Below are positions 36,997 through 52,113 of a stretch of DNA of 64,000 bases, one piece after another (position 1 is the stretch's first letter; each line of letters starts with the position of its first letter). Position numbers and translations under genes: made by a program. The stretch is taken from positions 2,604,001 to 2,668,000 of the forward strand of contig NZ_CP151657.1 of assembly GCF_038405225.1 (NCBI RefSeq), read 5' to 3'. Source of the DNA: Arthrobacter citreus (GTDB lineage Bacteria; Actinomycetota; Actinomycetes; Actinomycetales; Micrococcaceae). The notes beneath the pieces were generated by a model. That model saw only the letters and a program-made list of their open reading frames with translations. It was not told the origin of the DNA and ran no database searches.

Positions 36997-38121
36997 TTAA
37001 GAAGCGCGCCGAAAGAGGACTCCGCGGTGCGGCGGCAAGACGTATGACGACGGCGCGGGGCGGCCGGCGGCGTCGAGCATCCCTGCGGGAACGCGCACAC
37101 GGCGGCGGCGCCTGCCATCACCGTTGAGGTTCACTGCCGCGAAACCGCCGTCGAATTCCCGCCACCATGTGTGTCTGCTCCCCTGCGGCTCACCGAGCGG
37201 ACTGCCCAATTGCCAGTCAAGCTCGGGTGCGTGCTGGATGCGGCTGTAGTCGTCGTGAGCGGTGGCGGAGTAGGCTCCGGCGCCGGCACCGAAGATCCAG
37301 AACGCGGACAGTCCGTACCGGAAGTTGGGATGGCTGTCGTCGCCGTCGGTGGGGACGCGGAGAATGGATAATCCGGGGCCGGCCGCCTGCGGCAGCTGGG
37401 CCTCGGCGGTGACCGGGTCGAAGAGGTTCACCGGGCTGTAGCCGAGCCAGACCTCCTCGAAGCCGCCGCCGTAGGCCGCGTGGGATGCCCAGCGGCCGGC
37501 TTCCCTGCGGGATTCGGCGATATTCGGGACCAGGATTTTCCCGACGCCGTTCAATGCCGTGCCGGCGGCAGCCACCAGATTTCCGAGGGCTGCGCGGAAC
37601 ACGGCCATGTCCGCGGCACCGCGGATCGGCAGGTCCAGCCCGTAGTAGTCGTCAAAAACATCGTTGTCCGCCATCACGCCGTCGAACGGCGAGTCCGCGA
37701 ACTCGGCCACCACGTTGTCCACCCACCGGCGCTGGTAGTCCGGGTTCCAGACCTGCAGCTGCCAGTGTCCCGGGTACCGTTCCCACTCGATGCGGGTGCC
37801 GTCCAGGCGTGTGGCGAACCAACCGGCGTCGTCGTTCCCGGAGCCTCCGGAACTCCCGGAACTCTGGGAACGCCCGGAACCCGCCTCAGCCTCCGCGAAC
37901 GATACGCCCGAGCTGAAGACCGGACCCGGCTCGTAGCTGCGCGCAGAGGAAAGGCACTTGTAGGCCAGGACGGTCATGTCCGGGCGAAGCCGTTTGAGTT
38001 CCCGGGCGGCCCCGGTCTCCCAGGGCTGCAGGATTGCGGCCCGGTAGTGCCCGGCGGCAAAAGCAATCTGCTCTGTTGTCAACGGATCGCCGTACCGGAT
38101 CCAGGCGCCGACTCCGGTCAT
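36997..38121 (-). CDS. Putative glycoside hydrolase, GHL15-like
   Basis: 374 residues without a signal peptide. It opens WIRYGDPLTTEQIAFAAGHY, then RPDMTVLAYKCLSSARSYE, QLQVWNPDYQRRWVDNVV, and DGVMADNDVFDDYYG near residue 165, where Asp residues would sit at the end of a TIM-barrel strand. This pattern resembles the hypothetical glycosyl hydrolase family GHL15 (TIM barrel). A Ser/Gly-rich insert near residues 80-95 comes from a DNA microrepeat at about 37836-37882. It overlaps the PelF-like stop by four bases (ATGA), so it acts with that glycosyltransferase, perhaps trimming or processing the polymer. The reaction is unproven. Confidence 0.65.
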   Translation of the reverse strand: MTGVGAWIRYGDPLTTEQIAFAAGHYRAAILQPWETGAARELKRLRPDMTVLAYKCLSSARSYEPGPVFSSGVSFAEAEAGSGRSQSSGSSGGSGNDDAGWFATRLDGTRIEWERYPGHWQLQVWNPDYQRRWVDNVVAEFADSPFDGVMADNDVFDDYYGLDLPIRGAADMAVFRAALGNLVAAAGTALNGVGKILVPNIAESRREAGRWASHAAYGGGFEEVWLGYSPVNLFDPVTAEAQLPQAAGPGLSILRVPTDGDDSHPNFRYGLSAFWIFGAGAGAYSATAHDDYSRIQHAPELDWQLGSPLGEPQGSRHTWWREFDGGFAAVNLNGDGRRRRRVRVPAGMLDAAGRPAPSSYVLPPHRGVLFRRAS

Positions 38122-39824
38122 GAAACCACCGGTGCGAGGAAGTCCAGTTCCGCGGTGTCCAGCTGGCGCACGTGCGTGATGTTGCCAACGGCACGGTAGA
38201 TCCCGTTGTAGGAAGACATGATCTCGTGCATCTGGAAGAACTCCTCCACCCGGGTCCGGGCGTTGTCCGAGTGGTCAACATAGAGCTCCATGTTGCCGAT
38301 GACGGCCCGAATCTTCTCAGCCATCGTGTTCACATCCCCTGCCGGTACCAGTTCACCGCAGGACCCGACCATCCGCCCGTCGTTGGTGGCCAGTTCATCA
38401 CTGATCAGCTGACGCATGCCGCCGACGTCGGTCCCCACCGTGGGGATGCCTGCCGCCATGGCTTCCAGCACCACAATCGGCTGGCCCTCGTTGTAGCTGG
38501 GCAGCACCAGCAGGTCGAACTGGTCCAGCCGGTCGCGGACATTGACGGTGCCGTGGATGGTGACGTGGTCGTGCAGATCCAGTGCCTCGATCTTGGCCAG
38601 GCAAGCCTCGTAATACTCCGGAACGTGTTCGGTGGGACCCAAGACGTCCAGATGCAGGTTCGGGAAACCGTCCCGGCGCAGCAAATCCATGCTGGATAGC
38701 AGGTCCAGCAGGCCCTTGATCGGCACCACCCGGGCAATGTAGACGAGGTTCCACGTGTGGTTGTCTCCGTTGCGGACCAGCTGTTCCCGGGCGGCGAGCC
38801 GCGCCCGGTACTTCTCCTCGAACTCCTCGATCACCATGGCGTTGGGCACCACCACCGCCTTGTCGATGTCCGTTCCCAGGTGCGCCGCTTCGGTGATCGC
38901 CGTTGGGTAGAGATAGGTAATCAGTGAGGCGCTGGGGTAGCAGAAGTGTCCCATTTCGGTCCACCATGCCATCCAGGCCCGCTGCTCGTGCGTGACGTCG
39001 AAGGTGCGGTAGTCCTCGGAGGTGATGGAAAGCGCCATGTTGCGGTCCAGCAGCGTGTTTACCGTGTCCCGGACGTAGAGGTTGTGCTCGGTAAGGAGGA
39101 ACGAGGTGCCGTGGTCGCGTGCTGCGGCGGAACCCAGGAGCGAGGCGTAGCCGGTGGTGTGTGCGTGGTAAACACTGGCGCGGGGCATGGTTTCGCCGAG
39201 GATGGCGAAGGCCAGCGAAAGGAAGTTCCGCAGCGTCCAGAACGAATTCGCGAGCGAAAGGTTCAGCTGCGGCATCCGGACGGCGAGCGCTTCCATGAAT
39301 TCCCGCGTGCCGAGCAGTGCCCAGAGCGGATAGGTGCGGGTGCGTTCGTTGAACCCTTCGTCAATGAGGTCCCACAGCGGTTCGACCTCGCGGTCTTCGG
39401 ACAGTGCGTAGAGCGCGTCGAACAGCCGGTGCGCCAGGGCGGAGCGCTGGCTGGCATCCATGCCGAGGTCCTTGGCGGATACCTTCATGAAGTCGTGCCG
39501 GTGCTCCTGCATGCTCAAATACACCGGGCGGACCCAAAGGACATTCTCGGGCATGCCGTAGAGGTCTTCGGAGGGCGCGTTGGAGTCCCAGGTGATGTGG
39601 ATGATCCCGTAGGTCAGGTCCGGGTTGTGGGTGACGATGTCGTGCACCACGGCGGAGACGCCGCCCTTGAGGTAGGGGTAGGTGGATTCCATGACAATGG
39701 CGACGTCGACGTCGTCGTATTGGGCCTGCGCTGCGGCTTGGGCGGGGAGCACACCGGCGGTTCCCTGGGCCGTCGTCTGCCCGAGCGGGGCGCGGCGGAA
39801 GAGTTTCTGCTTGATTCCGTACAT
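38118..39824 (-). CDS. pelF: PelF-like GT4 glycosyltransferase
   Basis: About 568 residues, starting MYGIKQKLFRR at 39824 with GAAAGG upstream (a TTG at 39839 is less likely). The N-terminal domain DVAIVMESTYPYLKGGVSAV and IIHITWDSNAPSEDLYG are strongly PelF-like; the C-terminal GT4 motif is SYNEGQPIVVLEAMAAGIPT, containing the E-x7-E pair that binds the nucleotide-sugar. PelF is a soluble UDP-sugar-dependent transferase that polymerises the Pel exopolysaccharide. It sits between a PelG-like flippase and a hydrolase in one operon. Confidence 0.85.
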   Translation of the reverse strand: MYGIKQKLFRRAPLGQTTAQGTAGVLPAQAAAQAQYDDVDVAIVMESTYPYLKGGVSAVVHDIVTHNPDLTYGIIHITWDSNAPSEDLYGMPENVLWVRPVYLSMQEHRHDFMKVSAKDLGMDASQRSALAHRLFDALYALSEDREVEPLWDLIDEGFNERTRTYPLWALLGTREFMEALAVRMPQLNLSLANSFWTLRNFLSLAFAILGETMPRASVYHAHTTGYASLLGSAAARDHGTSFLLTEHNLYVRDTVNTLLDRNMALSITSEDYRTFDVTHEQRAWMAWWTEMGHFCYPSASLITYLYPTAITEAAHLGTDIDKAVVVPNAMVIEEFEEKYRARLAAREQLVRNGDNHTWNLVYIARVVPIKGLLDLLSSMDLLRRDGFPNLHLDVLGPTEHVPEYYEACLAKIEALDLHDHVTIHGTVNVRDRLDQFDLLVLPSYNEGQPIVVLEAMAAGIPTVGTDVGGMRQLISDELATNDGRMVGSCGELVPAGDVNTMAEKIRAVIGNMELYVDHSDNARTRVEEFFQMHEIMSSYNGIYRAVGNITHVRQLDTAELDFLAPVVS

Positions 39825-39856
39825 GGCTGTGCCTTTCAAGACGAGCGTGCGGCGGG

Positions 39857-41329
39857 TTACCAGGAGGTGGCGTGGCGCCAGAAGAGGGTGTATTCGGGCT
39901 GGGACCAGTGGCGTTTGTAGAGCACCCAGGACACGGCGACCAGCAGCACGTCCGCAGCGACCAGTGCCGCGTATGCCAGTCCGGTCCCGTCAGCGCTGCC
40001 TGCGGCATCCAGCAGCAGGAAGACTCCGGCGCAGAGCGCCAGATGGATGCCGCCGAACAGCTGCGGGAGTCCATTGATGCCGATGTAGTCGAGTTCGTAG
40101 CTGAGCAGTGTGAGGAGCATGAAGGCCCAGGACGCCACGCCCACGCTGACGGCCAGCAGCACGTTCGCCGGCTGCATGCCTTCCAAGACCAGGGTGACGA
40201 CGAGCGTGAGCATCATGCCGACGGCGCCGGTGCTGAGGATGGCGCGGTCCACCGTACGGCTGAGCCGTTGGGAGCGGGCTGTCATCACGGTCAGGGGCTC
40301 GTCGGAGATTGCCCGGTGAAGAGAGGCCACGGCTCTGTCCACCCGCGGGGCGAGGTTGACGAAGTAGTAGTTGTAGGCGATCACGGCGGGAAGCATCGCC
40401 ACGAAGATGATCACCACCGGGAAGTCGCCGCCGGTTGCCAGGAACAGCAGGAACTTGTCCGCCCAGAGGACTGCGCCCATGAGAAGGCCACGGACGAGGT
40501 CGGCGCTGAAACCGCGGAGGGCAGGCCGGTTCCGGAAACCAAGGGCCGCCAGGCCGCGTCCCATGGCTGCGATTTGGGTGAGCGCTCCGGCCAGGGGTGG
40601 CAGCCACCAGAGGGTCGGCGCCACGCTGAGTGCTGCGGCGTAGGCCAACCAGGCCAGCGCCCAGAGACCGCGGCGGCTTCCCACGTTGGCCAGTATGAGG
40701 GACTGGACAAAGAGCAGGTGCAGGGCGGCGAGCGCGGCGTAGGTTGCCATGGCGGTCAGAGACCAGCCGGTGGCGAGCCAGAGCGGGATGGCAAACAGCG
40801 CCACCAGCGGCAGGGCGTAGATGAACATCGCGGGCCAACCGGAGCAGAACCGGCGGGCAATAGCCGCCGGGTTCCGTTCCGCCATGAGGTCGCCGATCAG
40901 CCGGTATGCGGGTAGGCAGGCTGCCTGCGCCAGCCAGGGGACGGTGATGGAGGAGGCCAGCACCACGTAAGTGAGCTGGACCCCGCCAACTTGCACGGCC
41001 GCCATCTGCGGGCTGATCAGCGGAAAGACCAGGTTGAGCAGGATGACGGGCGAGAGGTAGAGGAGCAGTCCGGCTCCGGGACGGGCCGCGTCGTCGGCCC
41101 GTTTGCCGGAAGCGGTGGCGCCGTCCGTGCCGGGCCGCACGGGGCGGAGCTGCCGCAGCAGCACCGCCATGACCAGGAGCACTCCGGCCCCCAGAAGGGC
41201 GTACGACCAGCCGGTGGGAAGGATGTTGTCCGCAAACGGGACAGCGGCGGTGAGGAGGAGTGCGGCGATAATTGCCATAGTCCGGTGGCGGACATAGGCG
41301 TCGTGTAAGAGGGCCTGCAGGGATGGCAT
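39857..41329 (-). CDS. pelG: PelG-like polysaccharide flippase
   Basis: About 490 residues with roughly 12 helices, starting MPSLQALLHDAYVRHRT at 41329 with TGGAGAAT upstream. Features like YKYYF-type loops (AYNYYFVNLAPRVDRAV), QAACLPAYRLIGDLMAERNP and FCSGWPAMFIYALPLVA fit the MATE/Wzx-like PelG group. It should move the nascent polymer or its precursors across the membrane. The neighbouring PelF-like gene lies 32 bases downstream. No PelD/PelE equivalent (the c-di-GMP-sensing and TPR parts) is visible in the window. Confidence 0.78.
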   Translation of the reverse strand: MPSLQALLHDAYVRHRTMAIIAALLLTAAVPFADNILPTGWSYALLGAGVLLVMAVLLRQLRPVRPGTDGATASGKRADDAARPGAGLLLYLSPVILLNLVFPLISPQMAAVQVGGVQLTYVVLASSITVPWLAQAACLPAYRLIGDLMAERNPAAIARRFCSGWPAMFIYALPLVALFAIPLWLATGWSLTAMATYAALAALHLLFVQSLILANVGSRRGLWALAWLAYAAALSVAPTLWWLPPLAGALTQIAAMGRGLAALGFRNRPALRGFSADLVRGLLMGAVLWADKFLLFLATGGDFPVVIIFVAMLPAVIAYNYYFVNLAPRVDRAVASLHRAISDEPLTVMTARSQRLSRTVDRAILSTGAVGMMLTLVVTLVLEGMQPANVLLAVSVGVASWAFMLLTLLSYELDYIGINGLPQLFGGIHLALCAGVFLLLDAAGSADGTGLAYAALVAADVLLVAVSWVLYKRHWSQPEYTLFWRHATSW

Positions 41330-41720
41330 GAATTCTCCAGAACCACCGTTGATCGGCAGAGCCGGGCGGTGGGATTGCATGAGACGCGGATGTGGTTAAG
41401 GCTGCGTTTCGAGGACTGGGATCCCTTGAGCAGCCGCAGCGCCCGGAGCAGATTCCGGCTGGTGCCCCGTATCGGGATATCCCTTGCATTGGAGAGAATT
41501 TGCTTCACCGCCGGACTCCGCGGTGAGCACTTCCATCACCGTATGACCGGCGGCCGCTTCGGCTGCGAGTGGAAGGTACGTGACTATTCGTCCGTTTTAC
41601 TTGGTCTGTGTGGTGCTTTACTCCAGCGTGAAAGCGGACGCTACTCGTTACTTTTTGTCCCCTCTTACTATATATTCCGGCGGCTTGGCTCCCGCTGATT
41701 GTCAGCCTGATTCGTTCAAA
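41330..41720. other. Upstream region of the Pel-like operon
   Basis: About 390 bases with no supported gene. It must hold the promoter of the minus-strand Pel-like operon. The stretch 41580-41680 is noticeably AT-richer than the surrounding genes and contains TATATA at about 41670-41676; no operator was recognised. Confidence 0.5.
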
Positions 41721-41880
41721 GACGGTGGGGCCGAATGATCGGACACGCCATACGGTGCCGCGTTCGAGTCCCAATAATTCGGAATGGCCCTGGCAGGGCA
41801 TTGCTCAGCGCCGCGTTGATCCGAATGTCGCGGTCGCAGGTGAGCATCACCTAGGCTCCAGCGCGACGGCTTTGTTCCTG
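41721..41880 (-). pseudogene. Decayed arginine deiminase 3' fragment (relic B)
   Basis: Read on the minus strand, NKAVALEP is followed, after a frameshift, by VMLTCDRDIRINAALSNA, then FRIIGTRTRHRMACPIIRP. These align in order with the intact enzyme's [33 protein letters not shown] and [12 protein letters not shown]. The catalytic Cys position, normal spacing and stop are lost. It is a non-functional fragment of about 50 codons at the left edge of the accessory segment. Confidence 0.85.
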
Positions 41881-42112
41881 CCCGTCCGCGTACCTCCATC
41901 CCCAGAATCGTGTCGGGGGATGGCTAGGGAAGGCATGATGTTCAATCTCAATACGCTCGACATTATCAAGCTTCGGCGTCAGGCGAACCAGAATTTTCAG
42001 CCAGCTCTTCTAGTCGTGTGACGAGCTATGTGAGCATAGTCGCGACACTCTTGGCCCTATTCAGCCCCTTTGCCCCGGTCATCACCAATTACCAAGGTCC
42101 ACTGAACACGAG
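41881..42112. other. AT-richer spacer between the arcA relic and the accessory genes
   Basis: About 230 bases without a supported gene. Composition shifts to roughly equal AT and GC here. No clear repeat, integrase site or terminator hairpin was seen. Confidence 0.45.
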
Positions 42113-43846
42113 CTAGTCAGAATTCGCGTCTAGATAACTCTTGAGGTGCTCCCTCAGGGCGCCGTCGCAGACGTACACATATGTGCCCAAGATTCCCCGG
42201 GTGAGAAGCACGGAGTAGATATTTCTTACGTACTCGAGGATGTCCGAATCCGTATAGGTAATACCAAGTTTAGTATTGTTTTCGCGCCCCTTCACGTCGA
42301 AGTAATTGGTGCGGTCAAAAAATATGCTCCCGCTCTCGGGGTTGTAGCGAATGTCCTTTCCAATGATGACGCCCGCATAGTTGAGGTCATAACCCTGAAC
42401 TGTATGAATTGACCCCACCTCCTTTTCAGAACCGATGCGGTTGATCCAGTCTCTCTGTGTCGAGTTCCATCGAAGGCGTTCACCGTCAATCTCAATATCG
42501 AACGCTTCTTTATCTGTCTTGCTGCGCCAGGGCCAGGCATAGCCTGCTATCAGACGGGACAGGCCGCTCTCTTTTTCTCTATCAAGAATCTCGCGCTTCA
42601 TGTCGCTGAGATCGGAGAAGAATCGCAGGTCGTATCCGTCAAAGCGTTCCGGGGTCTGGGGCGGGCAATCGCTCAGGATGGCCCGAATGTATGCGACGTA
42701 ATCCTGCTCTGCAGAGATTCGCATTTGCGACGACAGCCGGTATAAGCGCCCGTTGACCGCGGCCTCTTCTAAGAGAGATGCCGTCATGCCTGCGGGGAGA
42801 TCCGCAGGTCGTACAGTTTGTCCTGCATCGAGCATGAGGATACTGGTCTTGCTCTGATGCCGAATCCAGTCCAGCTGGGTGTATTGCGGATCATCGCGGC
42901 CAAACAGTTTTTCGTTGATTTCGGCGAACTTCTTATTGAGCGGCCCGGAGGCCTGATTTGCCCGTTGATTCAGGCGGTGGGCCTCGTCGACGATGAGGAG
43001 ATCGAATGGCTCCTTGCTCGCGCCGACGTCGAACGGCGTGAGAACAAGATTCTTGTGGAGTCCAGGCGTACGCGTGAACACCTTGGAGATGGAGTCACGA
43101 AGAGACTGCTGAGGGACCACAACCCCGACTCTGAGCGAAGCTAGCAACTCTGCGTGGCCCGCAGTGAAGAAATCGCTGAAGATCGACTCATGGTCAAGCG
43201 GATTTTTCGGGTCATGGCCAGCTATGTCCATGAGCAACTTCAAGAGGTAGATCGCTACGACCGTTTTCCCAGTTCCGGGAAGTCCTTGGACTACGACGGT
43301 GTTAGACCGGTTGTTTTCGAGATCCTCGAAGAGACCTTCCAGGATATCTTCAACCGCCAGTGCCTGATCATGATTCAGCGCTTTGAAAGGGGAGAGCTTA
43401 AACAGATCACTGTTGATTATTTCCGGAAGGGTGCGTTGGAAGAGGTGTTCCTGGGTCCGCAACTTTTCGAACACTTCGTCGAAGGTCTTTTTGTAAGAGC
43501 CGCGGTCGTAGTAGTCGGCATCAGTAATGCCGGCATTGTGGTTAAGGACTGCAAGCCGGCCTTCGCCGGAGAACATGCGGATAAGGAAGGATTCGAGGTC
43601 CAGGCATGCGGACTTGTTGAATGTTGAGTCCAAAACAACGCGGGCCCACCTCAGACGCCTCTTTTCCTCGGATCCGAGGTGCTGACGCATGCGTCCTTCG
43701 ACGTTGAGCGATTCCCCTACATACACTTCGGTGTCGTTGTTCATCACGTACACAACTGGCCAGTTCCGATGAAGGGGGTCTGCTTCCCCCCACGCCCGCA
43801 CTCTATCGGACTCGAAAGGGAACCGTTCAAGCCTAAAGCCGGTCAT
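42113..43846 (-). CDS. GIY-YIG nuclease-like domain fused to a DUF2075 (superfamily 1-like) ATPase
   Basis: About 577 residues. Residues 30-110 hold a GIY-YIG-like module: VVYVMNNDTEVYVGESLNVE with GRMRQHL. The rest is a DUF2075 ATPase: Walker A QGLPGTGKTVVAIY near 190, Walker B LLIVDEAHRLNQRAN near 285, and the late helicase-type motifs GSIHTVQGYDLNYAGVIIG and SVLLTRGILGTYVYV. The start at 43846 overlaps the MazG-like gene by 14 bases; GTG at 43864 is an alternative. Codon use and GC are lower than the neighbours, suggesting acquisition. DUF2075 proteins with such nuclease modules occur in defence islands, but this protein's activity is not established. Confidence 0.82.
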   Translation of the reverse strand: MTGFRLERFPFESDRVRAWGEADPLHRNWPVVYVMNNDTEVYVGESLNVEGRMRQHLGSEEKRRLRWARVVLDSTFNKSACLDLESFLIRMFSGEGRLAVLNHNAGITDADYYDRGSYKKTFDEVFEKLRTQEHLFQRTLPEIINSDLFKLSPFKALNHDQALAVEDILEGLFEDLENNRSNTVVVQGLPGTGKTVVAIYLLKLLMDIAGHDPKNPLDHESIFSDFFTAGHAELLASLRVGVVVPQQSLRDSISKVFTRTPGLHKNLVLTPFDVGASKEPFDLLIVDEAHRLNQRANQASGPLNKKFAEINEKLFGRDDPQYTQLDWIRHQSKTSILMLDAGQTVRPADLPAGMTASLLEEAAVNGRLYRLSSQMRISAEQDYVAYIRAILSDCPPQTPERFDGYDLRFFSDLSDMKREILDREKESGLSRLIAGYAWPWRSKTDKEAFDIEIDGERLRWNSTQRDWINRIGSEKEVGSIHTVQGYDLNYAGVIIGKDIRYNPESGSIFFDRTNYFDVKGRENNTKLGITYTDSDILEYVRNIYSVLLTRGILGTYVYVCDGALREHLKSYLDANSD

Positions 43847-44153
43847 ACTTCTCACTTCTGCCACGGGCTTTGGCGACCGGGTACTTTCCCCGGGTTATGG
43901 CGAGCTTCTCCATCACGATAGTGTCCGGATCAAGGCCCAGTCGGTCGGCGAGCAGCAAACAGTAGGTCAGCACGTCCGCCAACTCCTCTTTTGCCGACAC
44001 CACATCGGCGTCGCCCCACTGAAAACACTCAAGAAGCTCGGCGGCCTCGATGCTGATACTTTTGGTCAGATTTTCTGCGGTATGGAATTGCCCCCATTCC
44101 CGCTCGCTGACAAACTCCCGCAGAGCGTTGATCACCGTCTTTTCGTGTTGCAT
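43833..44153 (-). CDS. MazG-like nucleotide pyrophosphohydrolase
   Basis: 106 residues, the size of a single all-alpha NTP pyrophosphohydrolase domain. The metal-binding EXXE and EXXD motifs appear as ISIEAAELLECFQW (about residue 34) and SAKEELADVLTYCLLLAD (about 54). Enzymes of this group hydrolyse (d)NTPs to monophosphates. It overlaps the downstream DUF2075 gene, implying coupled expression. Nucleotide depletion or removal of modified nucleotides would fit a stress or phage-response role, which is inference. Confidence 0.88.
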   Translation of the reverse strand: MQHEKTVINALREFVSEREWGQFHTAENLTKSISIEAAELLECFQWGDADVVSAKEELADVLTYCLLLADRLGLDPDTIVMEKLAITRGKYPVAKARGRSEKYDRL

Positions 44154-44335
44154 TCCACGAATTTATCAGCACCGCCTCCCCGCAGCGTTATTACCTGCCG
44201 AGTTGTCCCAAACGCCCGTCTCATTGACAGGGTGCCACCTCGCAGCGAACGGGCGTGGTCGACCCTAATCCGTGGGCAACACCGGCGCCATCTGCCAGGG
44301 CTGCGGCCACGACTGGGCAATCTAGTCTCCAGCAG

Positions 44336-47300
44336 CTACTTCGCCACCGCACTGGCCTCCATATATACGTCCGCAGGCATCGACCGCTGCAGTTTCCAGG
44401 TGATCGCAATCGGCCTTGACCCGGTGTGGTTCATGTAGTCCAGCTGGCCCAGACAGACGTACGGCATCGTCAGACCTGACTCGTCGTTTTCGCGCGCCCG
44501 CGTGAACAGCAGGATCTGCGTACCGGCAGCCTTGTGGTCGAGGTAGCGCTGACCCACCGGACTGCTCGGGGAGGTGCTGTTTTGTGACTCCCAATGGAAC
44601 ACATCCGAGCTCATCGCATAGTCCTTGTACATGATGCTGGCGGCCCGGTCCTTGGCATCCTTTTCCAGCGTCACGAAGAACGCGTCGGTTCGGGTGTCCT
44701 CACACCAGGCCACGCCTTCGCGGTGCCGGGCCTTCCGCCCGTCTAGCGCCAGGTATCCAAGGGCGGCCAATACCTCTTCCCGTCGGTAGGTCGCATGCGA
44801 GTACAGGGGAACGTGTGCCAGTCCGCGGCCCAAACCTTTCGGGGAATAACGCGTTCGCTCGACACCGAGGGCGACCAGTTGGCGGATCTCGGCGCAGACA
44901 ACCGGGAAGCTGCGCAGGAAATCGAAGCCGGCATCGTATGAGGTGAACTTCCTGCCCTCAGGCCACAGAGCAAAAAACAGCATCCGGGCCAGTGTCTGCT
45001 CGCGGGAACCCAGATCCTCGTAGCGTGGAGCATCAGCAGACACCAGCAGTGTGTAGGCCTCGGCGCGTTCGGGGTCGTCGACGCAAAGCAGTGTGGTCAT
45101 GCGGCGGAGCAGCAGTGTCTCCTCCGCGATCGACCGCTGTTCATCCCCGTCCAGCAGAGGCGCCGGACCGGAGCCAGCTTCAGCCAATCCCGCAGCACGA
45201 ATCAAAGAGGTCCAGGATTCCCCGGTTTTCCGGTAGACGTCTTCCAGGTCGCTGCCGGACTTTTGCAGGAAGTTGGCCAGGTTGGTTTCTTGATGGAGGC
45301 GGATGTCGGCGATCAACTGTGGCCGGTTGCTCCGCAGCTGATCACGAAGGCTGTCCGTGATGATCTGCTGGGACACCCGGTCCAGCACGATCTGGGAACC
45401 CGACGGCAGGAAGGGGAACCCCTTGTCAACCGCTTCCTTCAATCCTTTCCGCCGAAGGCCGGTGAGCGCGTGCAGCTTGTTGTCGAAGCGGAACTCGCGC
45501 CGCTGCTGGCCAATGAAGTCCAGGACTGTGAGCACGGCTTTGTCTTTGGCCCGGCGGAGCCCTCTACCCAGTTGCTGCAGGAAGATGGTGGAACTCTGGG
45601 TTGGCCGGAGCAACAGGATGGTGTCGACTTCTGGCAGATCAAGGCCCTCGTTGAAGACGTCCACGGCGAAGATACAGTTCAGCTCCCCCTTCCGCAGCCG
45701 GCTCAGTGCCGCTTTGCGTTCCTCTTCCGGGGTCTCACCCGACACCGCTGTGGAGGGGATGCCTGCCCTATTGAAAACGTCGCCCATGTATTTTGCATGT
45801 TCCACGGAAACGCAGAATCCCAGCGCCCTCATATCCTCAACGCTGGTGACGGTGCGTCGGGTTTCAGCGATGATCTTTGCTGCCCGTGCATCGTTGCCGG
45901 TGTACACATTGCTCAGCTGTGCGGTGTCATAATTGCCGCGCTTCCATTCCAGCTGGGTGAGGTCGACGTCGTCGGCCACCCCAAAGTAATGAAACGGAAC
46001 CAGCAGGTTGGCTTCCAGCGCATCCCACAGCCTCAGTTCGCTGGCCACCCGGCCCTCGAAGAACTGATCAGCAACATTGACCCCGTCACCCCGTTCCGGG
46101 GTGGCTGTGAGCCCAAGCAGCTCTTTCGGCTCAAACCACTCCATGATCCGGCGGTAAGTCGCCGACTCGGCGTGGTGGAACTCATCGATGACGACGACGT
46201 CGAAGTGGTCGGGTGCGAGCGACTCCAGACCCTTCGCGGCAAGAGATTGCACACTGGCAAACACATGCTTCCATTCTGACGGTTTGTGCTTACCGACAAA
46301 GAGCTCACCAAAGTTGCCGTCCTGCATGACGTTGCGGTACGTGGACTGTGACTGGGTCAAAATTTCCTGCCGGTGCGCAACGAACAACAATTTCAGATTG
46401 CGTCCGGCCGCGTCGCAAAGCCGTTTGTAATCCAGGGCAGCGATGACCGTCTTTCCGGTGCCAGTGGCGGCGACCAGCAGATTTCGGTCGTGGCCGTGGA
46501 CCTCTCGGGCCGCCTCCAGTTCCTCGAGCATGCCCTGCTGATACGGGTGCGGCTTAACTTCCAGCCCGGTGGAACCCTTCGGAATTGAGGTCTTCTTACC
46601 GCCATTGGTGGCGAGGGCAGCGTCGAGTTTGTCGCCGTCGCGTTCCGGGTCGTAAGGCTGGAACTCCGGCTGCTCCCAGTAGCTGTCAAAGGTCACTTCG
46701 AACTTCTGCAGCAGCTCCGGGGTTCCCACTGCGGACAGCTTAACGTTCCACTCCAGACCTTCGAGTAGGGCCGGGAGGCTGAGGTTTGAGCTGCCGACGT
46801 ACGCAGTATCGAAACCCGTATTCCGGCGAAACAGCCAGGCTTTGGCATGGAGGCGGGTGGCCTGTGTTTCGTAGTTGATGCGCACTTCTGCGCCGTAGGT
46901 ACGAACCAGCTCATCAATGGCACGCCGCTCCGTGGCGCCCATGTAGGTGGTGGTGAGCACGCGCAGGGGAACCCCGCGCTCCCTGAGCGTTTCCAGGGAC
47001 TTCCCCAGCAACCGCAGACCGCTCCACCGGATAAAAGCACATAGCATGTCAACCCGATCTGCGGACGCCAGCTCGGCGTTGAGCTCGGAAGCAAGACTGG
47101 GGTCATCCTTGCCGTTCGTCAGCAATGCGGGGCGGCTGAAGGACGTGGACGGCCGGAATACCTGACGGGCCGCCAGCCCTTCCGGCGGGAACAGCGAGGT
47201 CAGCTGCTGGGGGCCGGCCTGGATTAATGCCGCGCCCTGAAGATCGCTCAGGATGCTGTTGGCCAACGCCACGCGGTCCGCTGGCGCGGCTGCGGCAAGG

Positions 47301-47485
47301 GCACGCCGTGCCTGATTGGCAATGTGGCTGGCGAGAACATCGGGTGAGAGATCATCCGTGATTGTTTCAAAGGCCGCGTGCAGTTCAGGCTGCGTCTCAA
47401 TCCGCTCCGCTAGTTCCTTCGTGTACAACAGCTCGTAGAGACCTTCAGCCAGAGATTCCGGCTCTCCCCCATTGATGTTCTGCAA
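44336..47485 (-). CDS. PLD-domain/DEAD-like helicase/DUF3427 protein
   Basis: 1049 residues. A phospholipase-D-like nuclease domain lies at about 120-255 (RLHAKAWLFRR, then YVGSSNLSLPALLEG). A superfamily 2 helicase follows: Walker A VAATGTGKTVIAALDY near 335, DEFHHAE (DExH box), LLGLTATPERGD, and the C-terminal motifs AVDVFNEGLDLPEVD and FLQQLGRGLRR. The last 300 residues form a DUF3427-like domain (HWESQNSTSPSS, GQRYLDHKAAGTQILLFTR). The start is TTG at 47485, the only upstream option with the right N-terminus. This architecture is widespread in defence-island neighbourhoods. It lies 180 bases upstream of the MazG-like gene on the same strand. Confidence 0.88.
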   Translation of the reverse strand: MQNINGGEPESLAEGLYELLYTKELAERIETQPELHAAFETITDDLSPDVLASHIANQARRALAAAAPADRVALANSILSDLQGAALIQAGPQQLTSLFPPEGLAARQVFRPSTSFSRPALLTNGKDDPSLASELNAELASADRVDMLCAFIRWSGLRLLGKSLETLRERGVPLRVLTTTYMGATERRAIDELVRTYGAEVRINYETQATRLHAKAWLFRRNTGFDTAYVGSSNLSLPALLEGLEWNVKLSAVGTPELLQKFEVTFDSYWEQPEFQPYDPERDGDKLDAALATNGGKKTSIPKGSTGLEVKPHPYQQGMLEELEAAREVHGHDRNLLVAATGTGKTVIAALDYKRLCDAAGRNLKLLFVAHRQEILTQSQSTYRNVMQDGNFGELFVGKHKPSEWKHVFASVQSLAAKGLESLAPDHFDVVVIDEFHHAESATYRRIMEWFEPKELLGLTATPERGDGVNVADQFFEGRVASELRLWDALEANLLVPFHYFGVADDVDLTQLEWKRGNYDTAQLSNVYTGNDARAAKIIAETRRTVTSVEDMRALGFCVSVEHAKYMGDVFNRAGIPSTAVSGETPEEERKAALSRLRKGELNCIFAVDVFNEGLDLPEVDTILLLRPTQSSTIFLQQLGRGLRRAKDKAVLTVLDFIGQQRREFRFDNKLHALTGLRRKGLKEAVDKGFPFLPSGSQIVLDRVSQQIITDSLRDQLRSNRPQLIADIRLHQETNLANFLQKSGSDLEDVYRKTGESWTSLIRAAGLAEAGSGPAPLLDGDEQRSIAEETLLLRRMTTLLCVDDPERAEAYTLLVSADAPRYEDLGSREQTLARMLFFALWPEGRKFTSYDAGFDFLRSFPVVCAEIRQLVALGVERTRYSPKGLGRGLAHVPLYSHATYRREEVLAALGYLALDGRKARHREGVAWCEDTRTDAFFVTLEKDAKDRAASIMYKDYAMSSDVFHWESQNSTSPSSPVGQRYLDHKAAGTQILLFTRARENDESGLTMPYVCLGQLDYMNHTGSRPIAITWKLQRSMPADVYMEASAVAK

Positions 47486-47610: not shown

Positions 47611-48189
47611 CTAGCCCCAGTCGCTTGGCACCGCCGACACCGCGAGCAACGCGGCCAGCGGAACCTCCACCACCTCGCCGTTCAGCACCCGGGGATAAGG
47701 CTGACCGGTGAGCGCGGAGAGGGTGAGCCTGATCAGGGTGCCGTGCGCCACGGCGATGATTCGCTGGCCGGAGTACTGCTCGGCCACAGCGCGCAGCGCG
47801 GCGAGTCCACGCTGCGCCACGGCGTCCTCCGGTTCGCCGACGCCGATGCCGAGTGCAGCTGTAAGCTGCGGTTCGGTCAGGCCATTGAGGTGCAGGCCTT
47901 CGGCGGATCCGTAGTCCCTTTCGACCAGCCCGGGAACGGTACCGGCAGGCTGCAATTCAGTGGAGTCAGCGATGATTTGTGCTGTCTGCACAGCACGCAT
48001 CAGCGGCGACGAGACGACGACATCCCACTGACTAGCAGCCAACAGCCGCCCTGCCTCACGTGCCTGGGCGCGGCCCACACCATTCAGCGGATTATCGGTG
48101 CGGCCCTGCAGCCGCCGCTCCTGGTTCCAGTCCGTTTCGCCGTGCCGCACCAGGACCAACCGCTGAGTTTGCCTCCGGGCCGCGCTCAC
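47611..48189 (-). CDS. Histidine phosphatase superfamily protein
   Basis: 192 residues. The catalytic RHG motif is RLVLVRHGETDWNQERRLQG at about residue 10; the proton donor Glu should be in LVERDYGSAEG, and the second His in IAVAHGTLIRL. It matches PhoE/GpmB-like broad phosphatases. It starts with GTG overlapping the ATPase stop by four bases and is the last gene of the six-gene transporter operon. Confidence 0.9.
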   Translation of the reverse strand: MSAARRQTQRLVLVRHGETDWNQERRLQGRTDNPLNGVGRAQAREAGRLLAASQWDVVVSSPLMRAVQTAQIIADSTELQPAGTVPGLVERDYGSAEGLHLNGLTEPQLTAALGIGVGEPEDAVAQRGLAALRAVAEQYSGQRIIAVAHGTLIRLTLSALTGQPYPRVLNGEVVEVPLAALLAVSAVPSDWG

Positions 48190-49319
48190 GCCGGCACCAG
48201 TGTGCGGGGAGCTGCTTCCGCCTGCTGACCCGCAGCTTCGGAAGCGAACACGTGGGCCCTCAGCACCTCCGGCAAGACCCGGTCCCCCGGCTTGGGCACC
48301 CAGCCGGTGACATGCGCCCGCAACGTCCGGCCCTGCCAGTCCGCGGAGACGTCAAACCCGTGCGGCCCGTAGAGCGCGGAGGTCACCACGCCGGTCCTCG
48401 ACGAGTCGGAATCGCCGCCGTCACAAGGATGCAGCACCAGGTCCAGCGGCGACACCGCGGCGGTTACCGCAAGCGCGCTGTGCCCCAGACCGCCCACGCC
48501 CAAGCACGGCCCGGCTTCGAGCCGTACGCCGGGGATGCTGATGCCCTCCGCGATCTGAAGCCGTCCCTCCGCCCAGGTCCCGTCCAGCAGCACGGCATCG
48601 TTGACGAAAGACGCCACAAACGCCGAAGCTGGCTTCCGCACCAGCTCCTCAGGCGTGCCGATCTGCTCAATCCGCCCCGCCCGCAGCACCGCCACCCGGT
48701 CCGCCAGGGCCAGGGCTTCCGCCCGGTCGTGCGTGACGTGCACCGAGGTCAGTCCCTGCTCACTGGTCAGCGCCTTCAAGTCCAGCCGGAGCCGGGCCCG
48801 CAGCGGTTCGTCCAGGGAAGACAACGCTTCGTCCAGGAGCAGGGCCTGCGGAGCGCCAACAATCGCCCGCGCCAAGGCCACGCGCTGCCGCTGCCCGCCG
48901 GAAAGTGCAGCCGGCGCCCGCTCCCCCAGTCCGTCCAGCCCGACCAACCCCAGCACACTGCGCACCCGGGCCGCCGCATCTTTTCGGGGCACGCCCGCCA
49001 GGCGCAGCGGATACCCCACATTCCGGGCCACGGACCAGTGCGGCCAGATCGCGTGGTCCTGGAAAACCATGCCCAGGTTCCGTTTCTCCGGCGGAACCCA
49101 GGCGCTCGGGCCCGCCACCGGCGTGCCCCCGAGGCGCAGGGTGCCGCCCTCCGGCCGTACAAACCCGGCGATGCTGCGCAGCAGCGTGGTCTTGCCGGAA
49201 CCCGACGGACCCAGCAAAGCCAGGAATTCGCCGTCGTGCACGTCCAGGTCCACGTCCGCGAGGCCAACATGGCCGTTGGCATAGACGTGGCGCAGATTTT
49301 GGAGACTGATCGAAGACAT
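48186..49319 (-). CDS. ABC transporter ATPase, FbpC/PhnT-like
   Basis: 377 residues. Walker A GPSGSGKTTLLRSI near residue 36, signature ALSGGQRQRVALARA near 135, Walker B ALLLDEALSSLDEP (note DEA instead of DEP), and a TOBE-like C-terminal region (ALAVTAAVSPLDLVL). It starts immediately after the permease stop (TAA-ATG). It resembles ATPases of the iron(III)/2-aminoethylphosphonate/thiamine group. Confidence 0.9.
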   Translation of the reverse strand: MSSISLQNLRHVYANGHVGLADVDLDVHDGEFLALLGPSGSGKTTLLRSIAGFVRPEGGTLRLGGTPVAGPSAWVPPEKRNLGMVFQDHAIWPHWSVARNVGYPLRLAGVPRKDAAARVRSVLGLVGLDGLGERAPAALSGGQRQRVALARAIVGAPQALLLDEALSSLDEPLRARLRLDLKALTSEQGLTSVHVTHDRAEALALADRVAVLRAGRIEQIGTPEELVRKPASAFVASFVNDAVLLDGTWAEGRLQIAEGISIPGVRLEAGPCLGVGGLGHSALAVTAAVSPLDLVLHPCDGGDSDSSRTGVVTSALYGPHGFDVSADWQGRTLRAHVTGWVPKPGDRVLPEVLRAHVFASEAAGQQAEAAPRTLVPA

Positions 49320-51029
49320 TTACTTTCCCTTCCGGAAGCGGGTGCGCGCTGTGCGGCGGGCACCCAGGGCGGCGGTCGCGGAGAGCCCCGCGACGCCGAC
49401 GATCGTGACCAGCAGCGCCAAAGCGGACGCCGAGTTATAGTCCCCGGCCTGCTGGAGGTTGAAGATGACCACGCCGAGTGTTTGGGAGCCGGGCGCCACC
49501 AGGAGGATGGAAATGGTCAGTTCGCGCACGGCGGTCAGCGCCACGACGACGGCGCCGCTCACCGCCGCGGGAACGCTCAGCCGCAGCGCCACGTCGCCCA
49601 GAGCACGCAGCGGGCCGGCCCCGGAGATCCGCGCGGCCTCGTCCAGGGACAACGGCACGGATTCCAGCGGGGCCCGCACGGACTGGACCACCAGGGCCAG
49701 GAACGCCATGACATAGGCGCCGAGGATCACCCAGGGCGTGTTGAAGATGCCCAGCGCCGGGGCAATCAACAGCCAGGCGACGGCCAGGACCAGGCCCGGC
49801 AGTGCCTGCGGCAGCATGGCGGTGACGTCCAGCGCGGCGTTGGAACGGTGCTTGGTGCGGGTCAGGAGCGCACCAGCACCGAGTCCCAGCACGCCGCATG
49901 CCAGCGCGGCACCGAGTGCGAGCAACACCGAGTTCGCGATGCCGGTGAGCGCTCCGCCGCTGGTGACAGCGCGGGTGATGTTGGCCAGGGTCAGGTTCTC
50001 CCAGGTCAACGGCACCCCGGGCGCGGGCAGCAGCGCCTGCTCGGTCAGCGCCAGCAACGGCAGGACGCAGACGACGACGGCGGTGCACCACAGCAGCGCC
50101 GCCACCACCCAGCGGGCGGATCCCAGCTGCAGCGGCAATGCGGCTGCTCCGGAGCCGCCCAGTTCGCTGCCCCGGGGCAGCCGGCGCTGCAACAGCACGG
50201 CGGCCAGGCCCAGCACCAGAAGTACGACGCCGATTGCAGCCACGGCGGGCAGCGGATTGGTCACGGTGCCGGAGGCGAGGTAGCGGTACACCAGGGTGGT
50301 GAGCGTGGTGTACCGCTCGGGCAGGCCGATCAGCGCGGGAATGCCGAAGTCGGAGAGGTTAGCCACCAGGGTGAGCACAAACGCGGCCACCACGGCTGGG
50401 CGCACCAGCGGCAGGGTCACCTGGCAAAACGTGCGCAGCCCGCCGGCACCGCTGATCCGGGCGGCTTCCTCCAGGCTGCCCGGAACCCGGCGCAGCGCGG
50501 CACTGATCACCAGGTAGGCCAGCGGATAGGAGTGCACAGCCAGCAGGAACACCACACCGCCGCCGCCGTAAATATCCAGTATTGGGCGCGTGGATCCGGT
50601 CAGTGACATCAAGGCCTTGTTCACTGTGCCGGTCGGCGCGAGCAGCGCCATCCAGGACATCGCCCCAATGAAGGGCGGAATCAGGAACGGCAGCAGGAAA
50701 ATCCAGCGCAGCACCGTCCGGCCCGGCAGATCGGTCCGGTCCAGCACGACGGCGAGCAGCGCACCGAATGCGGTGGCCAGCGCGGCGGATCCGGCGGCGG
50801 AGGAAACGGAGTTCCACGCCGCCGCCAGCACGTCGGGGTCCGTGAGCACCTCGACGTTGGCCGGCTGGGCCCCGCGGAACACAATGACGCCAAGCGGCAG
50901 GAGCACCAGCACCGCCAGCACCGCCCAGACCGCCAGCCGGAGCCAGTGCAGTCCGTCGCCCCGCGGCCCGCCGGCGGTGGAGTTCCGGCCGGCGGGGCTC
51001 CGACCGGCAGGGCTCTGAGCGGCGGTCAT
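49320..51029 (-). CDS. Fused two-domain ABC permease, FbpB/PhnU-like
   Basis: About 569 residues with two permease domains, each with its EAA loop: SLEEAARISGAGGLRTFCQVTLP near residue 190 and LDEAARISGAGPLRALGDVALR near 480. About 12 helices. The start MTAAQSPAGRSPAG at 51029 is inferred; the repeated SPAGR segment comes from a short CCGGCGGG repeat. Such fused permeases are typical of Fbp/AEP importers. It lies 28 bases downstream of the binding-protein gene. Confidence 0.9.
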   Translation of the reverse strand: MTAAQSPAGRSPAGRNSTAGGPRGDGLHWLRLAVWAVLAVLVLLPLGVIVFRGAQPANVEVLTDPDVLAAAWNSVSSAAGSAALATAFGALLAVVLDRTDLPGRTVLRWIFLLPFLIPPFIGAMSWMALLAPTGTVNKALMSLTGSTRPILDIYGGGGVVFLLAVHSYPLAYLVISAALRRVPGSLEEAARISGAGGLRTFCQVTLPLVRPAVVAAFVLTLVANLSDFGIPALIGLPERYTTLTTLVYRYLASGTVTNPLPAVAAIGVVLLVLGLAAVLLQRRLPRGSELGGSGAAALPLQLGSARWVVAALLWCTAVVVCVLPLLALTEQALLPAPGVPLTWENLTLANITRAVTSGGALTGIANSVLLALGAALACGVLGLGAGALLTRTKHRSNAALDVTAMLPQALPGLVLAVAWLLIAPALGIFNTPWVILGAYVMAFLALVVQSVRAPLESVPLSLDEAARISGAGPLRALGDVALRLSVPAAVSGAVVVALTAVRELTISILLVAPGSQTLGVVIFNLQQAGDYNSASALALLVTIVGVAGLSATAALGARRTARTRFRKGK

Positions 51030-51057
51030 GATCTGCCCCGCCGGCATGGCCACCGAG

Positions 51058-52113
51058 TTACTTGAGGAGGTCATTGAACTTCGCGACGGCGCTTGCCTGC
51101 TTCTCGGCAATCACCGCGAGGTCCGGGTTCAGCAGCTCCACGTCGGCGAGGGCCGGCGCACCGTCCGGGACACCGGCGTCGTCGCGCACCGGGAGGTAGG
51201 ACTGCCCCACGGCCAGCTCCTGGCCTTCCTTCGATACGAGGAACTCCACGAACTGATTGGCGGCGTCAGGGTTCTTCGCATCGGTGAAAACGCCGGCCGG
51301 TTGGGAAACGTACGGCACGCCGTCGCTCGGGTAAGACAAGGCGATCGGTGAGCCCTTCGCTGCCAGTTCGCGGGCCACATAGTCCACCACAATCCCGATG
51401 CTCGAGGTGCCGGCGGCCACGGCCTGCCCCACCGGGCCGTTGCTTTCCAGCACTGTGGGTTCGTTCTTGACCAGGTCCTTCAACCAGTTCTCCCCCAGTG
51501 CCGGAGTCTCGAGCCAGACCGTGGTGTTGAAGGCAGCGGCACCGGAGACGTCCGGGTTCGGCATGGCGATGATGCCCTTGTATTCTTCGTCGGTCAGTTC
51601 GGCCCAAGACTCGGGGGCGTTGTCCACCAGCGTGGTGTTGTAGGCGATGACGGTGGGAATGATGCGGGTGCCAACGTAGTAGCCCTCGGCGTCGACAACA
51701 TCCGGGTTCAGTTCAGCGGTGTTGTCGATGTCCAGGACCTGCAGGTCACCCTCGGCGGCGTACGCCTCGAACGTGGGGACGTCGGCGGCGAGGATCACGT
51801 CCGCCTGGATACCGCCGGTCTCCTTCTCCGTGGCGATCCGGGTCTTCAGCTCGCCGGTGCCGGCGCGAAAGACCTCAACGCTGACCTCCGGATTGACCTC
51901 GTTGTAGGCGGCAACCAGTTCATCGATCTTGGCCTGCGGTTCGGAGGTGTACACCGTGAGCGTGCCGGTGGCACCGGCAGCTGCGCCCGCTGCGGCTGCC
52001 GGGGAGTTTTCGGCGCCGTCGGCGCTGCCGCCGCAGCCCGTCAGGAGAGCAAGCGTTGCCACGGAAGCAAGAGAGACGACGGCGAGGGCGGGGTACTTAG
52101 AGCTGCGCAGCAA
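51058..52113 (-). CDS. Fbp-type substrate-binding lipoprotein
   Basis: About 351 residues. It probably starts at TTG 52113 (AAGGAG seven bases upstream), giving LRSSKYPALAVVSLASVATL and the lipobox ALLTGCGGSA. The mature part reads LTVYTSEPQAKIDELVAAYN, then VSVEVFRAGTGELKTRIATE and VILAADVPTFEAYAAEG, matching SBP families 1/6/8 of the iron/phosphonate type. Tyr-rich iron ligands (YY motif) are not obvious; VDAEGYYVGTRI is the only YY pair. It overlaps the phosphoesterase stop by 17 bases. Confidence 0.85.
   Translation of the reverse strand: MLRSSKYPALAVVSLASVATLALLTGCGGSADGAENSPAAAAGAAAGATGTLTVYTSEPQAKIDELVAAYNEVNPEVSVEVFRAGTGELKTRIATEKETGGIQADVILAADVPTFEAYAAEGDLQVLDIDNTAELNPDVVDAEGYYVGTRIIPTVIAYNTTLVDNAPESWAELTDEEYKGIIAMPNPDVSGAAAFNTTVWLETPALGENWLKDLVKNEPTVLESNGPVGQAVAAGTSSIGIVVDYVARELAAKGSPIALSYPSDGVPYVSQPAGVFTDAKNPDAANQFVEFLVSKEGQELAVGQSYLPVRDDAGVPDGAPALADVELLNPDLAVIAEKQASAVAKFNDLLK

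What the first reader, a model, noticed from the sequence alone, without database searches (positions are those of the whole stretch)
41881..47485. Three-gene accessory cassette: PLD-helicase-DUF3427, MazG-like, GIY-YIG-DUF2075
Three same-strand genes combine a PLD-nuclease/SF2-helicase/DUF3427 protein, a small NTP pyrophosphohydrolase and a GIY-YIG/DUF2075 ATPase. The last two overlap, so they are probably cotranslated; the helicase is 180 bases upstream. By eye the 42-44 kb part is clearly AT-richer than the flanks, and it begins beside a broken arginine deiminase fragment. Two nuclease folds, two ATPase motors and a nucleotide-hydrolysing enzyme is a typical toolkit of anti-phage systems, including nucleotide depletion. 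The helicase and the DUF2075/MazG pair are each known in defence islands; that all three form one system is my inference.
Basis: partly seen in the sequence, partly recalled or inferred. Interest (0 to 1): 0.8.

Follow-up and report, generated by a model that had tools for sequence, protein, structure and literature searches.

The report
Restriction helicase beside MazG–nuclease pair
An Arthrobacter-like genome carries, at a spot where some related genomes keep other virus-defence genes, an enzyme resembling one that cuts chemically marked foreign DNA, next to a conserved but apparently unstudied two-gene pair (a likely nucleotide-destroying enzyme and a helicase with a DNA-cutting domain) that looks like a separate defence unit.

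Summary
The three genes and their domains are real, but look like two units, not one obligate system. (1) The PLD/SF2-helicase/DUF3427 protein is SauUSI-like (PADLOC mREase_IV, 1127 bits; PDB 7clg, E 1.3e-92). (2) The MazG-like and GIY-YIG/DUF2075 genes form an overlapping pair: MazG lies beside the GIY gene in 47 of 52 family loci and is found in 77 of 80 named loci. The MazG protein is closest to AF1178 and dCTP pyrophosphatases; the helicase domain is Schlafen group 3. Genome-level co-occurrence of (1) and (2) is at chance (19 of 53 against 121 of 342). At one site the pair has the restriction gene upstream (window), downstream (G003) or absent (G022). Adjacency still recurs: 13 loci, both orders, at least six gains or losses on the helicase tree, and a tight run (NUDIX, helicase, MazG, GIY) on a Lactiplantibacillus plasmid. 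Defence-type genes occupy the same site in at least two other relatives. PADLOC 2.0 has no strong match for the pair, and none of the eight relevant paper searches listed a paper on it. Boldest reading: the MazG protein clears modified dCTP so that modification-dependent restriction spares the host.

The parts
44336..47485 (-). [quoted passage not shown]
   Evidence: PLDc_2, ResIII, Helicase_C, DUF3427; PADLOC mREase_IV 1127 bits; PDB 7clg E 1.3e-92
43833..44153 (-). MazG-like all-alpha NTP pyrophosphohydrolase, 106 aa; closest solved relatives AF1178 and dCTP pyrophosphatases (DCTPP1/RS21-C6)
   Evidence: (PF12643)
42113..43864 (-). GIY-YIG nuclease domain fused to Schlafen-group-3 SF1 helicase domain (formerly DUF2075), 583 aa; probable start ATG at 43846
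43833..43864 (-). overlap of the MazG and GIY-YIG genes (32 nt from GTG, 14 nt from ATG)
44154..44335 (-). 182-nt gap between helicase stop and MazG start; no promoter- or terminator-like site was reported here
47611..51110 (-). right flank shared with relatives: His-phosphatase gene 47611-48189 and ABC transporter genes 48186-51110; anchor of the variable site
41381..42112 (.). AT-richer spacer (GC 0.572) with no recognisable gene

Best explanation
Two defence modules sit side by side at a variable site next to a His-phosphatase/ABC-transporter block. Module A is a SauUSI-like type IV restriction enzyme: its DUF3427 end would recognise modified cytosine (inferred from SauUSI), the SF2 motor would use ATP to sense two sites, and the PLD domain would cut. 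Module B is a conserved two-gene unit. Its GIY-YIG/SF1 protein would load on invader nucleic acid, translocate and nick it; the MazG protein would hydrolyse nucleotides, probably dCTP-like, either lowering the pool for phage replication or removing modified nucleotides. Shown here: anatomy, family assignments, conserved catalytic residues, conservation of the pair, largely separate distribution of the helicase, and a neighbourhood that often holds defence genes. Inferred: anti-phage activity, substrates, mechanism steps and order of arrival.
For: Domain calls. MazG beside GIY in 47 of 52 family loci, found in 77 of 80 named loci, and beside DUF2075-type genes in annotated plasmids of Bacillota and Halobacteria. 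Catalytic or motif residues are invariant in 23 GIY and 20 MazG sequences. MazG model pLDDT 89.8; first Foldseek hits AF1178 and mouse dCTPase. The GIY model hits RecD2 and SLFN11 first. Among immediate neighbours of the pair, PLD/DUF3427-type enzymes (DUF3427 in 3 of 69 upstream and 4 of 68 downstream) are the commonest defence class listed, with mad3, Mokosh, Lamassu, GmrSD and R-M proteins. Same-site comparison in the genus: pair with helicase downstream (G003), pair alone (G022), helicase upstream (window).
Against: No phenotype is known for the pair. PADLOC has no strong match for it (weak hits only: AbiO, Nhi, PDC-S41, PDC-S14), and many immediate neighbours are ordinary genes (9 of 69 upstream are zinc dehydrogenases, several in one Brevibacterium context). 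DCTPP1's cytosine-contacting His38 is a leucine here, so dCTP specificity is unsure. Repeated helicase-pair adjacency argues for more than unrelated neighbours.
Confidence: 0.62

Rival explanations
1. One functional three-gene system: the restriction enzyme cuts invader DNA while the pair depletes nucleotides and processes fragments; genomes with only part hold partial or degraded versions.
For: 13 adjacent loci found, 11 of them co-oriented (binomial 0.011, kinship ignored). NUDIX-helicase-MazG-GIY run on NZ_CP028230 with 17-bp gaps between the last three genes and NUDIX overlapping the helicase. The window's order also in G350, two Nocardioides, Arthrobacter sp. Leaf337 and an unverified virome contig.
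Against: Genome-level co-occurrence is at chance, 19 of 53 against 121 of 342, odds ratio 1.02 (counts by eye). Of 140 helicase-bearing family genomes 5 have the pair adjacent. In 22 named pair-bearing genomes 6 hold a helicase at E 1e-60, and none of those 22 loci has it nearby. At 68 further helicase loci, chosen without the known adjacent ones, no MazG or GIY lies in the stretch held. Both orders and both strands occur. GmrSD is also adjacent to the helicase in 2 of 56 GmrSD genomes, against 5 of 53 for the pair, p 0.26.
Confidence: 0.2
2. The pair is not defensive: a repair or housekeeping helicase-nuclease with a nucleotide-pool sanitiser that happens to lie in variable regions.
For: MazG-type enzymes are described as house-cleaners (title and start of abstract of PMC3855555 in the listing); many neighbours are metabolic genes.
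Against: Patchy distribution (4 of 29 in the genus, 53 of 395 in the family), low GC, broken copies in G022 and some others, defence neighbours, carriage of distant relatives on plasmids.
Confidence: 0.15
3. The adjacency is only hotspot co-location: both modules drift into the same islands with no functional contact. (Compatible with the best explanation; it is the stricter form.)
For: Same-site comparison and chance co-occurrence; the GmrSD control shows similar clustering, and GmrSD_N is in 4 of 126 neighbours of other helicases.
Against: Helicase and pair are adjacent within about 0.6 kb in 9 of 80 named loci, with at least six changes of state on the tree, mostly co-oriented; operon-like spacing in Lactiplantibacillus.
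Confidence: 0.5

Closest known systems
[quoted passage not shown]
   Same: PLD nuclease, SF2 helicase and DUF3427 in the same order; PDB 7clg (recalled to be SauUSI) aligns over window residues 118-725; PADLOC mREase_IV
   Different: Window protein scores 1127 bits with the PADLOC model PDLC03659 and 300 bits with PDLC03658; divergent DUF3427 (75.8 bits); no NUDIX gene beside it
DCTPP1 / RS21-C6 dCTP pyrophosphatase
   Same: Fold, E-x-x-E ... E-x-x-D, and pocket residues Trp47, Trp73 and Tyr102 (window W20, W46, Y64), invariant in 20 relatives
   Different: His38 is Leu; bacterial, 106 aa; here encoded next to a helicase-nuclease gene
Schlafen group 3 helicase domain (PF09848) and SLFN11
   Same: SF1 helicase fold; SLFN11 is the second Foldseek hit
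   Different: N-terminal GIY-YIG domain; no Schlafen core domain in the Pfam result; TM-scores of the structural matches are low (0.34-0.35)
AbiO, Nhi, PDC-S14 and PDC-S41 (PADLOC)
   Same: Weak HMM similarity of the helicase or GIY-YIG part (19-29 bits)
   Different: Far below family level; no PADLOC match for the MazG partner

Membership tests
SauUSI-like type IV restriction enzyme | PLD + SF2 helicase + DUF3427 in one chain | tested here: met
SauUSI-like type IV restriction enzyme | ATP-dependent cleavage of 5mC/5hmC DNA needing two sites | not testable with these tools
   property of SauUSI from passages of PMC3874153
DCTPP1-type dCTP pyrophosphatase | all-alpha NTP-PPase fold and E-x-x-E / E-x-x-D metal site | tested here: met
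DCTPP1-type dCTP pyrophosphatase | base pocket Trp47, Trp73, Tyr102 | tested here: met
   W20, W46, Y64 by the alignment; invariant; residue list from PMC4491611 passages
DCTPP1-type dCTP pyrophosphatase | His38 bonding to the cytosine | tested here: not met
   the profile alignment puts His38 on a leucine position, window Leu11
[quoted passage not shown]
   needs an enzyme assay
Schlafen proteins proper | Schlafen core RNase domain N-terminal to the helicase | tested here: not met
   Pfam finds GIY-YIG, SLFN-g3_helicase and overlapping generic helicase matches only
Schlafen group 3 helicase domain | match over the PF09848 cut-off | tested here: met
   214.5 bits against cut-off 24
Obligate three-gene defence system | three genes occur together in conserved order | tested here: not met
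System known to PADLOC 2.0 (MazG/GIY pair) | strong match of its proteins to a PADLOC model | tested here: not met
   MazG no match at E 0.001, GIY best 29 bits

The most novel reading that the evidence does not exclude
Nucleotide-pool guarding coupled to modification-dependent restriction. The dCTPase-like MazG removes 5-methyl/5-hydroxymethyl-dCTP that arises when modified invader DNA is degraded, or that the phage makes, so that modified cytosine is not built into host DNA and the resident type IV enzyme does not attack the host. The NUDIX gene directly upstream of SauUSI-type genes in Bacillota and Bacteroidota plasmid records would play the same part.
Probability: 0.13. Interest if true: 0.8.

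Novelty: new variant of a known kind. Interest (0 to 1): 0.5.

Why it matters
The MazG / GIY-YIG-Schlafen-helicase pair is found in actinobacteria, Bacillota and Halobacteria, has no strong match in PADLOC 2.0, and no paper on it was listed in the searches made; it is a ready candidate defence module. The recurring company of nucleotide pyrophosphohydrolases (MazG, NUDIX) and modification-dependent restriction enzymes suggests a testable idea about how such enzymes avoid attacking their own host.

Tried and rejected
Rejected: a single obligate three-gene system (chance co-occurrence; no pair in the stretches held around 68 further helicases). Not confirmed: a broken arginine deiminase at the border. 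No tRNA in the window that would mark an island. No near-identical plasmid copy. A NUDIX gene beside the window's own helicase subfamily was looked for and not found: no NUDIX-box ORF near 68 helicases (the pattern is insensitive, since it missed several annotated NUDIX genes) and none among the 25 Pfam families listed, of 93, for 126 neighbours. Promoter and terminator scans gave about what shuffles give. The SRA label that PMC12707154 (passages) gives to SauUSI's C-terminus was not tested.

Led nowhere or misspent: a pattern search of no use; plasmid MazG hits without the pair beside them; record without annotation. Ten paper searches, listings seen: 8, 18, 19, 28, 29, 30, 34, 35, 86, 87; eight of them (all but 19 and 86) bear on the pair. 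Read in passages only: PMC13092281, PMC3874153, PMC12707154, PMC4491611. The SauUSI paper PMC3141236 is not held.

Recalled, from no call: that 7clg is SauUSI; that E. coli NudG acts on 5-methyl-dCTP; GIY-YIG and SF1 motif consensus; the names PelF and PelG.
Full report
What is there. The three open frames are as described, all on the minus strand. Pfam finds PLDc_2, ResIII, Helicase_C and DUF3427 in the 1049-aa protein; MazG-like (PF12643) in the 106-aa protein; GIY-YIG and PF09848 in the 583-aa protein, the family once called DUF2075 and now SLFN-g3_helicase. The helicase-MazG gap is 182 nt. MazG and GIY overlap by 32 nt from the GTG start or 14 nt from the in-frame ATG at 43846; the 'MT' at that ATG is conserved in most relatives. 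GC is 0.537 for GIY, 0.564 for MazG, 0.610 for the helicase and 0.655 for the window. I could not confirm the arginine deiminase fragment.

The helicase. PADLOC places it in mREase_IV (PDLC03659, 1127 bits, residues 109-1047; PDLC03658, 300 bits). The closest solved sequence is 7clg, a 953-residue 'putative helicase' (E 1.3e-92), which I recall to be SauUSI. Passages of the review PMC3874153 describe SauUSI as an N-terminal PLD, middle ATPase/helicase and C-terminal DUF3427 protein, active alone, ATP-dependent, cutting m5C and hm5C DNA and needing two sites. The anatomy is the same here; the specificity cannot be read from sequence.

The pair. In 52 loci with the GIY gene from 395 family genomes (the window not counted), a profile finds MazG beside it in 47; the five others are one locus without MazG, one contig end and three broken or partial GIY copies. 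In 80 loci of named genomes (the best 80 of 554 relatives), MazG is found in 77, and 76 pass my adjacency test; of the three without it one is at a contig edge with a MazG remnant. In a phylum-wide draw the family is rare: 9 of 396 genomes at E 1e-60, several of them partial matches. Annotated plasmids show a nucleotide pyrophosphohydrolase directly beside a DUF2075-type gene in Lactiplantibacillus, Ligilactobacillus (order reversed), Priestia and the archaeon Halalkalicoccus; in Marivirga it lies before an unannotated match, with one small gene between. In Paenibacillus amylolyticus the two are on one plasmid about 10 kb apart, and in L. amylolyticus none is annotated beside it. The invariant columns of 23 GIY proteins include Tyr39, Tyr48, Arg58 and Glu91 of the GIY-YIG part, and G194..GTGKT201, VDE 292-294, Arg382 and QGYDLN 490-495 of the helicase part (the motif reading is recalled).

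What the MazG protein is. A profile of 20 relatives matches AF1178 (4qgp, E 4e-25) and mouse/human dCTP pyrophosphatase (E 1.6e-22), then trypanosomal dUTPases; E. coli MazG is not among the 11 matches at E 0.01. The predicted structure (pLDDT 89.8) has 4qgp and mouse dCTPase, with dCMPNPP, 5-Me-dCMP or dCMP bound, as first Foldseek hits. PMC4491611 (passages) lists the DCTPP1 pocket as His38, Trp47, Glu63, Glu66, Trp73, Glu95, Asp98 and Tyr102, and reports that DCTPP1 hydrolyses 5-methyl-dCTP with higher specificity than dCTP. By the alignments the window has W20, E36, E39, W46, E57, D60 and Y64 at seven of these eight, all invariant; His38 falls on a leucine. So the metal site and hydrophobic pocket are kept and one base contact is not. 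That is evidence for a (d)NTP pyrophosphohydrolase and only suggestive for cytosine.

What the GIY protein is. The model (pLDDT 87.5) matches RecD2 and human SLFN11 best; TM-scores are low (0.34-0.35), through domain movement or true divergence. In the PDB sequence search at E 0.01 there was one marginal match, RecG (E 0.0023).

One system or two? Genus: GIY in 4 of 29 genomes, helicase in 12 of 29. Family: 53 and 140 of 395. Of the 53, 19 hold a helicase; of the 342 without GIY, 121 do; odds ratio 1.02, p 1.0 (counts by eye). Helicase and pair are adjacent in 5 of the 53 (window, G003, G005, G350, G036) and 7.6 kb apart in one (G274). Of 22 named pair-bearing genomes searched, 6 hold a helicase at E 1e-60; none of those loci has it nearby. 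Among the 80 named loci the helicase profile hits 10; nine are adjacent (within about 0.6 kb) and one is 7.6 kb away; four of these ten are the same loci as in the family set. With a Lactiplantibacillus plasmid and an unverified virome contig, MT836409, that looks chimeric because its first 3430 bases match a Sphingomonas plasmid at 98%, I count 13 adjacent loci. Seven have the helicase upstream and four downstream on the same strand; two are on the opposite strand. On a tree of 80 helicases, in which the adjacent ones are over-represented by choice, the adjacent state needs 7 gains or losses, at least 6 forced by well-supported branches (quick method, some long branches; the tree does not say which are gains). 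At 68 further helicase loci, picked without the known adjacent ones, there is no MazG or GIY gene in the stretch held, about 2.5 kb or more on each side for most. As a control, GmrSD, another type IV family, is in 56 of 129 family genomes and next to the helicase (under 2 kb) in 2 (G059, G140), which does not differ significantly from 5 of 53 (p 0.26); it is next to the pair in 2 others (G119, G147) (by eye from coordinates). GmrSD_N is also in 4 of 126 immediate neighbours of the 68 helicases.

Same-site history. The His-phosphatase/ABC block right of the cassette is found with long matches in 10 of 29 genus genomes, own included (the 29 of 29 tally there includes short ABC-transporter matches elsewhere). 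At this block G022 has the pair alone (its GIY gene is broken), G003 has pair then helicase, and the window has helicase then pair. In G010 the place holds a GmrSD protein, an Eco57I-type methylase and an SNF2 helicase; in G004 a helicase copy in two pieces about 8 kb away and a type I restriction subunit beyond it. A PADLOC scan of 104 of 115 genes called in nine such stretches names mREase_IV, methylases and others (25 of 187 families listed, not split by locus); I did not annotate the remaining stretches one by one, and several look metabolic. The helicase's nearest relatives, in G024 and G018, are at other sites. The simplest reading is a variable, defence-rich site at which the pair and the helicase arrived separately.

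Neighbours of the pair elsewhere. PADLOC at E 1e-10 names mREase_IV (PDLC03659) in 3 of 69 upstream and 5 of 68 downstream neighbours; DUF3427 itself is in 3 and 4, so one downstream hit is a related helicase. Next come mad3/mad8, Mokosh, Lamassu, SoFic and R-M proteins, up to three times each among the 25 families listed. Pfam adds GmrSD domains (GmrSD_C in 2 upstream; GmrSD_N in 3 and GmrSD_C in 2 downstream) and NUDIX (3 downstream), but also nine upstream zinc dehydrogenases and many metabolic genes. So the pair is often, not always, in a defence context.

A lead. Of the seven plasmid records that cover at least 80% of the Lactiplantibacillus helicase, five have a gene annotated '(deoxy)nucleoside triphosphate pyrophosphohydrolase' directly upstream: Lactiplantibacillus, Latilactobacillus, a Staphylococcus aureus record, Limosilactobacillus and Hymenobacter (in the Staphylococcus and Limosilactobacillus records the helicase itself is not annotated and matches in pieces). 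The other two are an unannotated Fusobacterium record and a Neotabrizicola record without it. In Limosilactobacillus a MazG-type gene follows the helicase with no DUF2075 gene annotated. In Priestia a mutT gene, a DUF3578 gene, MazG and DUF2075 follow each other; the DUF3578 gene of Paenibacillus has MrcB_N and a weak HNH match. In L. amylolyticus a NUDIX-annotated gene, a GmrSD_N protein and an AspBHI/Mrr-type protein (opposite strand) precede DUF2075. Nucleotide pyrophosphohydrolases thus recur beside restriction enzymes of modification-reading families, which prompts the pool-guard reading in the section on the most novel reading. Against it: no NUDIX was found near the window's own helicase subfamily, His38 is missing, and there are no statistics beyond these few records.

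Literature. No paper held both DUF2075 and DUF3427 or DUF2075, GIY-YIG and phage; five held DUF2075 at all, none on defence by title. A passage of DefensePredictor (PMC13092281) says that MazG and other nucleotide domains are predicted, and none validated, as defensive. The statement that no paper on the pair was found rests on the listings and on PADLOC 2.0 of 2023; later catalogues or papers not held may describe it.

Noticed in passing
window 36997-41380: GHL15 glycosyl hydrolase, DUF3492/GT4 glycosyltransferase (PelF-like, recalled) and a 507-aa protein without a significant Pfam match (PelG-like, recalled) lie left of the cassette: a possible Pel-type polysaccharide cluster in an actinobacterium.
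   Followed up: partly
L325 3607-6844 (NZ_CP077890.1), L262, L326, L260, L256: A gene annotated (deoxy)nucleoside triphosphate pyrophosphohydrolase lies directly upstream of SauUSI-type genes in Bacillota and Bacteroidota records.
   Followed up: partly
L004-L006, G022:C1:3411077-3412814: The orthologous GIY-YIG/helicase gene at the same site in G022 (Arthrobacter sp. ATA002) matches in three pieces, with a stop inside one.
   Followed up: no
L248 3783-13235 (G010): At the same site another genus member carries an Eco57I-type methylase, an SNF2 helicase and a GmrSD protein, possibly a different defence system.
   Followed up: partly
L259 (MT836409.1): A 'Bacteriophage sp.' virome contig carries helicase-MazG-GIY in the window's order; its first 3430 bases match a Sphingomonas plasmid at 98%, so it looks chimeric.
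   Followed up: partly
L255 3522-4802 and L329 1367-2434: DUF3578 (MrcB_N) genes sit just upstream of the DUF2075-type gene or of MazG in Paenibacillus and Priestia plasmids.
   Followed up: partly
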